64,000 bases of DNA, taken from Mesorhizobium sp. M9A.F.Ca.ET.002.03.1.2 (lineage in GTDB: Bacteria; Pseudomonadota; Alphaproteobacteria; Rhizobiales; Rhizobiaceae). The notes under the pieces are model-generated. The model searched no databases. It saw only the letters and a program-made list of their open reading frames with translations, and was not told the DNA's origin. Shown one piece after another: positions 31,217 through 47,510 of this stretch. Where the stretch lies: the NCBI RefSeq assembly GCF_003952365.1, contig NZ_CP034443.1, positions 2,411,001 through 2,475,000 of the forward strand, written 5' to 3'. Position 1 is the stretch's first letter; every line of letters begins with the position of its first letter. Made by a program: the position numbers and the translations under genes.

Positions 31217-32425
31217 ATGGACAGGCGCGTCGTCATCACCGGAGTGGGCGGCCTGTGCGGACTGGGCACCGACGCCGCCTCTATGTGGAAAGAGATGCGC
31301 GAAGGCCGCTCCGCCATCGGCCCGCTCGTCAATTCCGAGCTTCATGACCTGGAGGGCATGACGGGCGCTGAGATCAAGGCGCTGCCCGAGCACGACATCA
31401 ACCGGGGGCATCTCATCTCCATGGACCGCTTCAGCTTGCTCGCCGTGCTTGCAGCGCGCGAAGCCATGCGGCAGGCCGGACTTTCCTGCGACGAAGGGAA
31501 TGCCCATCGCTTCGGCGCGACAGTGGGCGTCGGATTTACCGGTTCATACGCAACAGAACAAACTTACCGCTCACTGCTTTTGGGTAGCGCAATCCGTGCT
31601 GAACTCTTCACTGGAGTAAAGGTGATGCCCAGCGCCGCTTCCGTCCATCTTAGCTTGAGCCTCGGCTTGCGCGGGCCGGTGTTCGGGGTGACCTCCGCAT
31701 GTGCCTCGGCCAACCATGCGATCGCCTCGGCGGTGGATCAGATCAAGCTGGGCCGGGCCGACGTAATGGTTTCCGGGGGCAGCGACGCGCCGTTCGCATG
31801 GGGCGTGCTGAAAGCATGGGAAGCAATGCGCGTGCTTTCACCCGATACATGCCGGCCCTTCTCCGCCGATAGGAAGGGCCTGGTGCTGGGCGAGGGTGCG
31901 GGCATGGCCGTGCTGGAAAGCTACGAGCATGCCACGAGGCGTGGTGCCACAATTCTTGCCGAGATCGCCGGCGTCGGCCTTTCCGCCGATGCCTTCCACA
32001 TTGCCGCGCCATCTGTCGAGGGGCCAGCGTCGGCGATGCGCGCCTGCCTTGCCGATGCCGGGCTGAATGCCGAGGACGTCGACTACCTCAACGCGCACGG
32101 CACCGGTACCAAGAGCAATGATCAGACTGAAACGGCGGCGATCAAGCGTGTGTTTGGAAACCACGCTTATTCGATGTCCATCTCTTCCACCAAGTCCACG
32201 CACGCGCATTGCCTCGGCGCAGCGAGCGCGCTTGAAATGATCGCCTGCGTGATGGCAATCCAAGAGGACGTCGTGCCGCCGACCGCCAACTATCGCGAGC
32301 CAGATCCCGCTTGCGACCTCGACATCACACCCAATGTGCCGCGCGAGCGCAAGGTGCGCGTCGCCATGAGCAACGCCTTCGCCATGGGCGGCACGAACGC
32401 AGTTCTGGCATTCAGGCAGGTGTAG
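31217..32425 (+). CDS. nodE: NodE beta-ketoacyl-ACP synthase, copy 1
   Basis: 402 residues, KAS II (FabF) fold. With NodF it builds the unsaturated acyl chain that determines host range. Active-site Cys162 (SACASANHA), His in HGTGT and the Lys/His region STKSTHAHCLGA are present. Residues 107-148 differ from copy 2 at 24 of 42 positions, whereas the rest of the protein differs at only nine positions (27, 38, five between 62 and 70, 159 and one near the C-terminus). In KAS II enzymes this block contributes to the acyl pocket and dimer interface. Intact. Confidence 0.95.
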   Translation: MDRRVVITGVGGLCGLGTDAASMWKEMREGRSAIGPLVNSELHDLEGMTGAEIKALPEHDINRGHLISMDRFSLLAVLAAREAMRQAGLSCDEGNAHRFGATVGVGFTGSYATEQTYRSLLLGSAIRAELFTGVKVMPSAASVHLSLSLGLRGPVFGVTSACASANHAIASAVDQIKLGRADVMVSGGSDAPFAWGVLKAWEAMRVLSPDTCRPFSADRKGLVLGEGAGMAVLESYEHATRRGATILAEIAGVGLSADAFHIAAPSVEGPASAMRACLADAGLNAEDVDYLNAHGTGTKSNDQTETAAIKRVFGNHAYSMSISSTKSTHAHCLGAASALEMIACVMAIQEDVVPPTANYREPDPACDLDITPNVPRERKVRVAMSNAFAMGGTNAVLAFRQV

Positions 32426-32463
32426 AAGCCATGCAAGACGCCTCATTTGAGGTCACCTGTCGT

Positions 32464-32990
32464 ATCTAGCTGCTTGCCGGACCACTATGTGAAGCGAGCG
32501 CTATTGGCTGCCTCTGCGATGCGGGAATTGGCAGCGGACGTCTCACGATCAAACAGGCATCTGCTTGTAGAATTCTTTTAATCGTGAAGCGGCGCGAGTG
32601 CGCTATCCGTTGAGGTGAGCAAGGCCGGCGCCCTGGGTGAGCGCTGGTGTCGGGTGGTGGAAAGTACAGGGGGAGCTGTGTGGCCCCCTCTTTCTCGGCC
32701 TCGACGATGTGCGAAGGAGCCTGTGCGGCGAACGGGCCGACGCCCCAGGCTCAGAACCTGGGCGAACCTAACTCCCGCCAAAGGACAGCCCAGAGCTGGA
32801 TACACGAAAGAGATACTGAACCCGCGAATCAGATTCTGATCAATCGTCGTGTCTGAGCTCCGCTCGGCTCTTACGGAGATAATCGCGCGGCCCGGCAACG
32901 GCCGCGCGTGCCGCGGGCGTGAGCTTTGCGCTTCGTCAGAAGTGCCTCGAGCGTGACGACGATAATTGACAAGCCATATGGAACGCATTC
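32464..32990 (-). pseudogene. nodD: nodD remnant 2, split by an insertion
   Basis: Bases 32464-32560 match the nodD 3' end (GCTTGCCGGA, GGGAATTGGCAGCGG), and 32870-32985 match its 5' end (ATAATCGCGC, GTGCCTCGAGCGTGACGA). Between them lies unrelated sequence containing the repeat at 32665-32790. Divergent to nod box 2, as in the other modules. Confidence 0.6.
32665..32790 (+). repeat. Repeat shared with 47581-47705
   Basis: About 125 bases (opening ACAGGGGGAGCTGTGTGGCC) nearly identical to 47581-47705. Both copies lie shortly after nodE, so they are the right-hand end of the duplicated nodFE block. Possibly remnant of a mobile element; no coding content recognised. Confidence 0.65.
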
Positions 32991-32998
32991 GCCCAGTT

Positions 32999-33046
32999 AT
33001 CCAAAGCGTGGATACCTTTCATCTAAACAAAGGATTTTACCGTTTT
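32999..33046 (+). promoter_or_regulatory. nod box 2 (upstream of nodABCIJ)
   Basis: ATCCAAAGCGTGGATA-N5-ATCTAAACAAAGGATTTTAC, a nod box with some deviations at its 3' end. It lies 233 bases before the nodA start. Confidence 0.85.
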
Positions 33047-33278
33047 TGCTGCAGGTCCCATAGAAGCGCTTCAAGTTGGAAAGATAGGTAGTTCCGATGG
33101 TTGCGTTGGATCCGAGGAGCATCATCTGGTGTGCGGGGCGTACAAAGTCAGTCGCATCTGCATTGCGGCTTGGTCTTTCGGCGGTCTCCACAAGTTACGC
33201 CCCGTTGGCACGACGCCAATTATTTAACCCATGCTTGGACATTTATCTCAACCAGACAGCTACAAGGTAAGGTCTTCC

Positions 33279-45630: not shown

Positions 45631-45731
45631 TCTGGAATCCTGCATGGGCAGAAGCACCTGACGGACACCGATGCCCCACTGCCTCATAGCGTGGCGAGCG
45701 TCTTAAGAAACCGCCCGAAAGGAGATTTTTC

Positions 45732-45870
45732 ATGCGCTCTACCGGGCAGTGGAGTGCTGGGAAAGGGAGTTGCAACTGACCGGCCATGTCAAACTGTCCG
45801 ACTTCTTCCGAGCCTATGGACAGACTGGGAGACGCGCACGGTGTAGCGGCTCACATCGTCATACTGCACC
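45732..45870 (+). pseudogene. nodA: Decayed nodA (leader of nodFE copy 2)
   Basis: Same remnant as at 30571-30785 but with a further deletion of about 80 bases in the middle (the sequence jumps from GACAGACTGGGA to GACGCGCACGGTG). Confirms that both nodFE units descend from one nodA-nodF-nodE arrangement already decaying. Confidence 0.75.
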
Positions 45871-46019
45871 TACGCCACACATCGGCCGGACCTGATCCGG
45901 CTTTATGAGCATTGGGCTTTGTCAGTCGCACAAGCGTGATGGCTTTCGCGACGCGGCGCGCCTCAGGAACTGAGCCGCGGGTCCGGGTCGAAACGCGGGA
46001 AAGAAAGACAGGAAACAGA

Positions 46020-46301
46020 ATGGCCGATCAATTCGCAACGGACGTCATTGCCCTGATCAAGAAACGCGCCGAGTCGGAGAGCGGTGAGGGAATGCCTGCG
46101 TCATTCGTCGGCGAGATAACAATCGCCACGGAACTGGACGCGCTCGGGTTCGATTCGCTGGGTTTGGCGGACGTCCTCTGGGATGTGGAACAGGCCTACG
46201 GCATCAAGATCGACATGAACACGGCCGATGCCTGGTCGAATCTCAAGAATGTCGGCGACGTCGTGGACGCCGTCCGCGGCTTGCTTGCGAAGGAGGCTTG
46301 A
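46020..46301 (+). CDS. nodF: NodF acyl carrier protein, copy 2
   Basis: 93 residues, phosphopantetheine Ser46 in GFDSLGLAD. Only residue 7 differs from copy 1 (Thr). Behind nod box 4 and directly followed by nodE copy 2. One NodF type could therefore serve both NodE enzymes. Confidence 0.92.
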   Translation: MADQFATDVIALIKKRAESESGEGMPASFVGEITIATELDALGFDSLGLADVLWDVEQAYGIKIDMNTADAWSNLKNVGDVVDAVRGLLAKEA

Positions 46302-47510
46302 ATGGACAGGCGCGTCGTTATCACCGGAGTGGGCGGCCTGTGCGGACTGGGCACTGACGCCGCCTCTATGTGGAAAGAGATCCGCGAAGGCCGCTCCGCC
46401 ATCGGCCCGCTCGCCAATTCCGAGCTTCATGACCTGGAGGGCATGACCGGCGCTGAGATCAAGGCGCTGCCCGAGCACGACATCGATCGCAAGCAGCTCG
46501 TCTCCATGGCCCGCTTCAGCTTGCTCGCCGTGCTTGCGGCGCGCGAAGCCATGCGGCAGGCCGGACTTTCCTGCGACGAAGGGAATGCCCATCGCTTCGG
46601 CGCTACAGTGGGCGTCGGCGGCTTGGGCTGGGATGTAATGGAGGAAACTTACCGGGCCCTCCTTTTGGACGGCGCGAGGCGAGTTGGCATCCTCGCTGTA
46701 CCCAAAACGATGCCAAGCGCCGCCGCCGGCCAGGTGAGCTTGCGCCTCGGCTTGCGCGGGCCGGTGTTCGGGGTGAACTCCGCATGTGCCTCGGCCAACC
46801 ATGCGATCGCCTCGGCGGTGGATCAGATCAAGCTGGGCCGGGCCGACGTAATGGTTTCCGGGGGCAGCGACGCACCCTTCGCATGGGGCGTGCTGAAAGC
46901 ATGGGAAGCAATGCGCGTGCTTTCACCCGATACCTGCCGGCCCTTCTCCGCCGATAGGAAGGGCCTGGTGCTGGGCGAGGGTGCGGGCATGGCCGTGCTG
47001 GAAAGCTACGAGCATGCCACGAGGCGTGGTGCCACAATTCTTGCCGAGATCGCCGGCGTCGGCCTTTCCGCCGATGCCTTCCACATCGCCGCGCCATCTG
47101 TCGAGGGGCCAGCGTCGGCGATGCGCGCCTGCCTTGCCGATGCCGGGCTGAATGCCGAGGACGTCGACTACCTCAACGCGCACGGCACCGGTACCAAGAG
47201 CAATGATCAGACTGAAACGGCGGCGATCAAGCGTGTGTTTGGAAATCACGCTTATTCGATGTCCATCTCTTCCACCAAGTCCACGCACGCGCATTGCCTC
47301 GGCGCAGCGAGCGCGCTTGAAATGATCGCCTGCGTGATGGCAATCCAAGAGGACGTCGTGCCGCCGACCGCCAACTATCGCGAGCCAGACCCCGCTTGCG
47401 ATCTCGACGTCACGCCCAATGTGCCGCGCGAGCGCAAGGTGCGCGTCGCCATGAGCAACGCCTTCGCCATGGGCGGCACGAACGCAGTTCTGGCATTCAG
47501 GCAGGTGTAG
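46302..47510 (+). CDS. nodE: NodE beta-ketoacyl-ACP synthase, copy 2
   Basis: 402 residues, all catalytic residues as in copy 1 (Cys162, HGTGT, STKSTHAHCLGA). Block 107-148 reads GLGWDVMEETYRALLLDGAR onward and differs from copy 1 at 24 positions without any length change; residue 159 is Asn here and Thr in copy 1. Flanking DNA is nearly identical to copy 1. Intact and predicted to make an acyl chain that may differ from that of copy 1. Confidence 0.95.
   Translation: MDRRVVITGVGGLCGLGTDAASMWKEIREGRSAIGPLANSELHDLEGMTGAEIKALPEHDIDRKQLVSMARFSLLAVLAAREAMRQAGLSCDEGNAHRFGATVGVGGLGWDVMEETYRALLLDGARRVGILAVPKTMPSAAAGQVSLRLGLRGPVFGVNSACASANHAIASAVDQIKLGRADVMVSGGSDAPFAWGVLKAWEAMRVLSPDTCRPFSADRKGLVLGEGAGMAVLESYEHATRRGATILAEIAGVGLSADAFHIAAPSVEGPASAMRACLADAGLNAEDVDYLNAHGTGTKSNDQTETAAIKRVFGNHAYSMSISSTKSTHAHCLGAASALEMIACVMAIQEDVVPPTANYREPDPACDLDVTPNVPRERKVRVAMSNAFAMGGTNAVLAFRQV

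What the first reader, a model, noticed from the sequence alone, without database searches (positions are those of the whole stretch)
31217..47510. Two nodFE cassettes whose NodE proteins differ mainly in one central block
Seen: nodF differs by 1 residue; NodE copies match except 24 of 42 residues in block 107-148 (31535-31660 versus 46620-46745), five in 62-70 and four scattered. Lengths and catalytic residues are unchanged. Known: the central domain of NodE sets host specificity through acyl-chain type, and in KAS II enzymes residues around 108-135 line the acyl pocket and dimer interface. Inferred: one strain encodes two acyl-chain specificities, with flanks homogenised by gene conversion and the pocket kept divergent; mixed NodE dimers may give more products.
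Basis: partly seen in the sequence, partly recalled or inferred. Interest (0 to 1): 0.92.

Follow-up and report, generated by a model that had tools for sequence, protein, structure and literature searches.

The report
Twin nodE genes, one patch different
A group of plant-nodulating bacteria, largely chickpea symbionts, carries two nearly identical copies of a gene that shapes their signal to the plant, and the copies stay different mainly where the enzyme grips its fatty acid and carrier protein, so one bacterium may make two versions of the signal.

Summary
In detail: two nodFE cassettes 15,085 bases apart, NodF differing at 1 residue and NodE at 33 (24 in 107-148, 5 in 62-70, 4 scattered). 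It is not a local artefact: all 8 one-contig genomes with the pair (window included; 4-5 haplotypes) have copy A first, B second. Of the 33 differences 27 are fixed across these 8, all in two patches (codons 64-70 and 107-145); in 1613 flank columns none is fixed, and the flanks of both copies tend to vary together within a genome, as under gene conversion. A's patch groups with viciae-type NodE (96-97), while the flanks of A and B group together (100). The patches cover 8 of 14 FabF residues reported as carrier-protein contacts or acyl gate; 400 of 402 circular shifts score lower, one (by 3 residues) scores higher. A/A and B/B drafts are best read as short-read collapse. Both cassettes carry the same nod box. 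Best reading: a kept pair of NodE specificities on the chickpea symbiosis element. Two acyl products remain inferred: no chemistry turned up in the searches made, and both AlphaFold models failed. Neutral persistence of a divergent block is not excluded. Astragalus/Caragana mesorhizobia carry a diverged pair of the two classes.

The parts
30303..32476 (+). nodFE cassette 1: the repeat unit, with nod box, nodA-like remnant, nodF and nodE
   Evidence: blastn of the two regions: 30303-30669 with 45455-45830 (94%), 30745-32476 with 45831-47561 (95%)
45455..47561 (+). nodFE cassette 2; lacks about 75 bases present in cassette 1 at about 30670-30744; homology ends within about 60 bases after the nodE stop
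30422..30470 (+). nod box of cassette 1
   Evidence: 36 of 41 informative positions of a recalled consensus; best score in 3 shuffled windows 27
45582..45630 (+). nod box of cassette 2, the same 49 bases as in cassette 1
   Evidence: 36 of 41
30935..31216 (+). nodF copy 1 (93 aa, acyl carrier protein)
   Evidence: Pfam PF00550, 5.1e-08
46020..46301 (+). nodF copy 2 (1 aa different, M7T)
31217..32425 (+). nodE copy 1, type A (402 aa beta-ketoacyl-ACP synthase)
46302..47510 (+). nodE copy 2, type B (402 aa)
31400..31426 (+). patch 1 in nodE-A, codons 62-70 (NRGHLISMD)
   Evidence: 7 fixed copy1/copy2 sites at nt 186-209 in 8 one-contig genomes
46485..46511 (+). patch 1 in nodE-B, codons 62-70 (DRKQLVSMA)
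31535..31660 (+). patch 2 in nodE-A, codons 107-148: aligned to the FabF acyl gate and carrier-protein docking strip
   Evidence: fixed sites nt 318-435; mapping
46620..46745 (+). patch 2 in nodE-B, codons 107-148
32998..33046 (+). nod box before nodA
   Evidence: 34 of 41
33231..33869 (+). nodA reading frame (NodA homology from residue 17)
   Evidence: NCBIfam NF001974, TIGR04245
33824..34525 (+). nodB (polysaccharide deacetylase family)
   Evidence: Pfam PF01522; the name follows from position
34541..35866 (+). nodC
   Evidence: NCBIfam TIGR04242
36128..37042 (+). nodI
   Evidence: NCBIfam TIGR01288
37046..37834 (+). nodJ (ABC-2 membrane protein)
   Evidence: Pfam PF01061; the name follows from position
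38107..38883 (+). sulfotransferase, probably nodH
   Evidence: Pfam PF13469, PF00685; a passage of PMC8627217 says Cicer symbiosis elements carry nodH
42912..43871 (-). LysR-type regulator, probably an intact nodD
   Evidence: Pfam PF03466, PF00126

Best explanation
The symbiosis element of this lineage (largely chickpea mesorhizobia) carries two nod-box-controlled nodFE operons whose NodE enzymes differ in substrate and carrier handling. Shown by sequence: gene conversion, or an equivalent exchange, keeps nodF and most of nodE alike, while 27 residues in two patches stay type A in copy 1 and type B in copy 2 in all 8 one-contig genomes. By alignment to E. coli FabF the patches hold the acyl gate (FabF I108 = NodE 107: F in A, G in B) and much of the carrier-protein contact strip (FabF K65, R68, R127, I129, S130, P131, F132), and also FabF 133-134 (NodE 132-133: T-G in A, A-V in B), which I recall, from no call, as pocket residues. 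Inferred: NodE-A (viciae-type patch) and NodE-B (more FabF-like patch) elongate different acyl chains, or take them from the carrier protein with different preference, so one cell puts two acyl populations on its Nod factors; loss of either type by conversion is selected against. Mixed dimers are possible but untested.
For: All 8 one-contig genomes with the pair have A then B. In 1613 flank columns no copy1/copy2 difference is fixed; 6 sites vary among genomes with both copies alike in every genome, one of them (nt 279) between the two patches. Within-genome copy distance is 0.35-0.69% in nodF, nodE 1-180 and nodE 451-800, against 0.76-1.17% between the same copy of different genomes; in the block 33% against 0.7-1.1%. 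True pairing of copies gives the fewest flank differences: 69 against a mean of 120 (48 of 40320 pairings reach it). Block tree: A with viciae-type NodE at 96-97, A+B clade rejected (AU p 0.0013); flank tree: A+B at 100, A with the viciae-type rows rejected (p 0.0008). Among the 8, no amino-acid variation within codons 107-145 of A or of B. 8 of 14 published FabF contact/gate residues differ; 400 of 402 circular shifts score lower. The same nod box before both cassettes. A second lineage (M. amorphae, M. caraganae, M. temperatum) carries a NodE of each class in separate nodFE cassettes, each with its own nodF and a nod-box-like site.
Against: dN/dS of the patch between A and B in the window is about 0.40 (dN 0.43, dS 1.08): old divergence, not positive selection. 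The 8 genomes are only 4-5 haplotypes; with 4 representatives the pairing test reaches at best 1 of 24. Upstream of nodF the within-genome distance (1.33%) is not below that of copy 2 between genomes (1.05%). 6 of the 14 FabF residues do not differ, and one circular shift, by 3 residues, scores higher than the real position (9 against 8); the list was taken from the paper after the patches had been seen. The viciae-type group was named after the tree had been seen, so those AU values are too good. Draft G095 has an amino-acid change within block B. No acyl chemistry was found; both AlphaFold models failed (pLDDT about 33). If the A/A and B/B drafts are real, either type can be lost in a strain that still nodulates chickpea (WSM4311, WSM4313).
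Confidence: 0.58

Rival explanations
1. Heterology barrier: a divergent nodE patch entered one copy once, by recombination or by ancient paralogy, and has persisted because conversion tracts stop at about 35% divergence. The flanks are homogenised passively; the two enzymes may be equivalent.
For: Patch dS 1.08 against flank 0.043, dN/dS about 0.4; block and flanks have different tree positions, as after one exchange.
Against: Two separate patches persist with a homogenised stretch between them; they cover contact/gate residues better than 400 of 402 circular shifts; no amino-acid change within either type in codons 107-145 among the 8 one-contig genomes; a second lineage keeps the two classes as diverged paralogues.
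Confidence: 0.27
2. Dosage: the duplication serves to raise NodFE output and the patch difference is incidental.
For: Whole cassette with nod box duplicated; NodF practically identical.
Against: 24 of 42 patch-2 residues differ in the window, and the type at each position is the same in 8 of 8 one-contig genomes.
Confidence: 0.1
3. Assembly artefact: one of the window's copies is a chimera.
For: Drafts of one element disagree: WSM4306 A/B, WSM4311 A/A, WSM4313 B/B with an A-type patch 1, and P0088 has a mixed patch 1.
Against: 8 of 8 one-contig genomes agree. One-contig G099 and draft WSM4306 show 0 substitutions in about 19.5 kb, and most of the A/A and B/B drafts differ from a one-contig relative almost only inside the patches, as expected if the drafts collapsed them.
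Confidence: 0.03

Closest known systems
NodE of Rhizobium leguminosarum bv. viciae (central-domain work, Bloemberg et al. 1995)
   Same: Same family; A's patch groups with it. [quoted passage not shown] the paper itself not seen)
   Different: As recalled, there the alternative specificities sit in different strains; here two types sit on one replicon. The flanks of the chickpea copies are outside the viciae-type clade in the best tree (uniting both copies with it is not rejected, p 0.21)
Dual nodFE cassettes of Astragalus/Caragana mesorhizobia (M. amorphae CCBAU 01570, M. caraganae, M. temperatum)
   Same: One NodE of each patch class in one genome, each with its own nodF
   Different: 2.4-4.3 kb apart, diverged along their whole length (one is 401 aa), not homogenised
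Rhizobium yanglingense CCBAU01603, 'multiple copies of nodE' (PMC5702008, passages seen)
   Same: More than one nodE per strain is already in print
   Different: The passages seen do not describe a patch difference or conversion
Escherichia coli FabF and its AcpP complex (6OKG, PMC7138838, passages seen)
   Same: Homologous by sequence; gate and contact residues align without gaps inside the patches
   Different: Housekeeping enzyme; both NodE copies score below the FabF equivalog cut-off

Membership tests
NodE / KAS II-type beta-ketoacyl-ACP synthase | Beta-ketoacyl synthase N- and C-terminal domains | tested here: met
   PF00109 and PF02801 in both copies; NF005589 above its cut-off of 387 in both (407.6, 430.4)
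NodE / KAS II-type beta-ketoacyl-ACP synthase | Cys-His-His catalytic residues | tested here: met
   C162, H294, H331 aligned to FabF C163, H303, H340 in both
Housekeeping FabF (NCBIfam equivalog TIGR03150) | Score above the equivalog cut-off 493.75 | tested here: not met
   412.8 (A) and 434.5 (B)
nodFE operon | nodF directly upstream of nodE, behind a nod box | tested here: met
   the nod-box consensus was recalled, and two stricter recalled patterns found nothing
NodE acyl-specificity determinant | The protein determines the Nod-factor acyl chain | not testable with these tools
   needs mutants and mass spectrometry
Concertedly evolving gene pair | Copies within a genome more alike than the same copy between genomes | tested here: met
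   nodF and the nodE flanks; 4-5 haplotypes only; the segment upstream of nodF is mixed (within 1.33%; copy 1 1.80%, copy 2 1.05% between genomes)

The most novel reading that the evidence does not exclude
Chickpea symbiosis elements depend on a two-channel acyl system: NodE-A, with its altered docking face, draws chains from NodF, while NodE-B, with a FabF-like lysine (K64) and arginine (R126) on the docking face, can also draw on the housekeeping carrier protein; the plant needs both Nod-factor acyl populations, so conversion is tolerated everywhere except over the docking face and gate.
Probability: 0.2. Interest if true: 0.8.

Novelty: new variant of a known kind. Interest (0 to 1): 0.6.

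Why it matters
It offers natural A/B variants of one enzyme on the same backbone in a crop symbiont, so two open questions become testable by single deletions: which NodE residues set the Nod-factor acyl chain, and whether a host such as chickpea needs more than one acyl form. It also warns that short-read drafts probably misreport this locus: 9 of 13 drafts in which the pair could be typed show a homogenised state that none of the 8 one-contig genomes shows.

Tried and rejected
Residue mapping therefore rests on sequence alignment to E. coli FabF only.

One search used FabF numbering off by one (5 of 14 hits); one search corrects it. One search counts 28 fixed positions; codon 62 of copy B varies (N/D), so 27 are fixed as amino acids; codon 62 is not among the 8 hits.

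A recent donor for either patch: outside the chickpea lineage the best patch is 77% (A, M. tamadayense) and 80% (B) over residues 60-150 (120 of 144 hits listed in 52), so none was found. Which patch is native is unsettled: the block tree has 147 columns and low support around B, and uniting A, B and the viciae-type rows is not rejected for the block (p 0.09) or the flanks (p 0.21). The trees hold 2 of the 8 one-contig genomes (G000, G068).

Hydrophobicity of patch 2 differs little (GRAVY 0.38 A, 0.21 B); not used as evidence. Two literal nod-box patterns found nothing; the degenerate consensus did.

The family-wide search (394 genomes, drawn evenly, 4 candidates scored per genome at most) gave 9 genomes at E <= 1e-198; only the window's and G080 had two matches. 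At that threshold weaker NodE are missed. In the block searches at most 5 candidates per genome were scored.

Literature: 9 of 10 paper searches used. In their listings I saw no paper on two nodE types in chickpea mesorhizobia or on Nod-factor acyl chains of chickpea strains; one search was badly worded and returned unrelated papers. Most subscription journals are not in that library, so this is no proof of absence. Passages of PMC9973854, PMC12237847, PMC7966745, PMC9239051 and PMC11837538 were seen; of these only PMC11837538 (WSM4303 to WSM4906 named as recipients of the CC1192 element) bears on the report.

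Full report
What is there. The window is part of a one-contig 6.4-Mb genome; the genus is inferred to be Mesorhizobium from named records identical in contig length to genus members. Two nodFE cassettes on the + strand lie 15,085 bases apart. NodF differs at one residue. NodE copies differ at 33 of 402 residues: 24 in 107-148, 5 in 62-70, 4 scattered; 74 nucleotide differences, 49 in nt 316-450. Each cassette has a nod box with the same 49 bases (36 of 41 informative positions of a recalled consensus; best in 3 shuffles 27). 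Homology ends within about 60 bases after nodE. Between the cassettes lie nodABCIJ, a sulfotransferase that is probably nodH, a dicarboxylate carrier and a LysR regulator that is probably nodD (nodB, nodJ, nodH and nodD are named from family and position).

How widespread. Of 146 genomes in the genus (window included), 26 carry block A or block B at 97% identity or more: 12 both, 6 A only, 8 B only; the next matches are at 79% or below. The records that could be named are strains whose codes contain '.Ca.', M. wenxiniae, ES1-4, and WSM4306, WSM4311 and WSM4313. PMC8090884 (passages and section 7 seen) says the three WSM strains came from field-grown chickpea and carry the whole symbiosis element of M. 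ciceri CC1192. That '.Ca.' means Cicer arietinum is recalled. All 8 one-contig genomes with the pair (G000, G047, G068, G074, G075, G076, G077, G099) have A first and B second.

Drafts mislead. Of 13 drafts in which the pair could be typed, 4 are A/B (G084, G114, G125, G145), 4 A/A (G072, G079, G080, G093) and 5 B/B (G067, G083, G091, G094, G095); in G067 and G091 both copies join an A-type patch 1 to block B. Against 8 of 8 A/B in one-contig genomes, Fisher p is 0.0046. G087, G088, G089, G090 and G098 show one type only. One-contig G099 and the drafts WSM4306 and ES1-4 have no substitution in about 19.5 kb. WSM4311 (A/A) differs from G099 at 56 sites, all in the patches of nodE2. WSM4313 (B/B) differs at 57, all but one in the patches. 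G080 (A/A) differs at 61, 5 of them elsewhere. G079 (A/A) differs at 449, beginning upstream of the cassette, and was not analysed further. From one-contig G068, G083 and G094 (B/B) differ at 58 sites, all in or between the patches, G093 (A/A) at 59 with one elsewhere, and G095 (B/B) at 64 with at least 3 elsewhere. G091 (B/B) differs from one-contig G047 at 60, nearly all in the patches (all). The WSM strains were sequenced as 2 x 250 MiSeq reads and assembled with SPAdes. Collapse of a repeat longer than the reads is the simplest reading; very recent conversion is not excluded. The A/B drafts carry little independent weight either.

Concerted evolution. In the 8 one-contig genomes every fixed copy1/copy2 difference from 700 bases before nodE to its stop lies at nt 186-209 or 318-435. 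In 1613 flank columns none is fixed, and 6 sites vary among genomes with both copies alike in each genome, one of them between the patches. Copies within a genome are closer than the same copy between genomes in nodF (0.35% against 0.76-0.86%), nodE 1-180 (0.69% against 1.13-1.17%) and nodE 451-800 (0.36% against 0.83-0.95%); in nodE 801-1209 the difference is small (0.52% against 0.59-0.83%) and upstream of nodF it is mixed (1.33% against 1.80% and 1.05%). True pairing of copies is the minimum over all pairings, but G068, G074, G075 and G077 are identical in the flanks, so there are 4-5 haplotypes, and with 4 representatives the result is the lowest of 24. In the flank tree the two G068 copies group at 98-99, the two G000 copies only at 63-64; a tree with the two A copies together is just rejected (p 0.049).

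Where the patch comes from. The block of A groups with viciae-type NodE (96-97) and away from B (A+B rejected, p 0.0013); the flanks put A with B (100) and reject A with the viciae-type rows (p 0.0008). The viciae-type group was named after one search had been seen. Its rows are mostly symbionts of galegoid legumes, but M. metallidurans and M. tamadayense are among them; these host labels are recalled. B's patch shares more of the 28 discriminating sites with housekeeping FabF (0.46-0.54) than A's does (0.25). Patch dN 0.43 and dS 1.08, flank (nt 439-1206) 0.005 and 0.043, for the window's two copies: the patches are far older than the flanks, without a sign of positive selection. Within either type no amino-acid change is seen in codons 107-145 among the 8; draft G095 has one in block B, also seen in record P0001.

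What the patches do. Passages of PMC7138838 list FabF Lys65, Arg68, Lys69, Arg127, Lys128, Ile129, Ser130, Pro131, Phe132, Ala205, Arg206 and Thr270 as carrier-protein contacts and I108 and F202 as gate; K65E and K65A/K69A mutants showed reduced crosslinking. Eight of these 14 fall on fixed A/B differences; of 402 circular shifts 400 score lower, the real one 8, and a shift by 3 residues 9. Both copies keep the catalytic residues. A has G64 and I126 where B has the FabF-like K64 and R126, and F107 where B has G107. So the kept difference lies at the carrier docking face as well as the gate. That it changes the acyl chain is inference.

Second lineage. M. amorphae CCBAU 01570, M. caraganae and M. 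temperatum carry two nodFE cassettes 2.4-4.3 kb apart, one NodE with an A-like and one with a B-like patch (the first residues of M. temperatum's A-like patch are mixed), each with its own nodF and a nod-box-like site upstream. Here the copies differ along their whole length. Passages of PMC5702008 report multiple nodE copies in R. yanglingense CCBAU01603 from the same hosts. A pair of the two classes thus occurs in two groups of mesorhizobia; whether by common descent or twice is open.

Verdict. A real, conserved, heteromorphic nodE pair on a symbiosis element; homogenised flanks and the location of the patches are shown, the two acyl products are not. It is a new variant of a known kind, of clear interest and directly testable.

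Noticed in passing
30671-30781 against 33385-33495: A nodA-like remnant (90% over 111 nt) lies between nod box and nodF in cassette 1 and, shortened by about 75 bases, in cassette 2: nodFE probably once followed nodA in one operon.
   Followed up: partly
30013-30420 (-), 45035-45580 (-): nodD-like remnants next to both cassettes; the second matches the nodD-like gene at 42912-43871 (81% and 90% over two stretches), the first is judged from its translation.
   Followed up: no
G080 and G091 drafts, nodE copy 2 (loci L045, L047): The draft reading frames have altered C-termini (416 and 459 aa); in five loci the nodE match spans 1433 instead of 1206 bases, as if a 3' piece were repeated. Real or assembly error is unknown.
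   Followed up: no
P0088: NodE record with block A but a patch 1 mixed from both types, on a 46,722-base contig, the length also seen in WSM4311 and WSM4313: probably another draft chimera.
   Followed up: partly
39269-40555: Dicarboxylate carrier (PF00375), probably dctA; a passage of PMC8627217 says Cicer-associated symbiosis elements have two.
   Followed up: no
L126, L138, L142: Two diverged nodFE cassettes with separate nod-box-like sites in Astragalus/Caragana mesorhizobia.
   Followed up: yes
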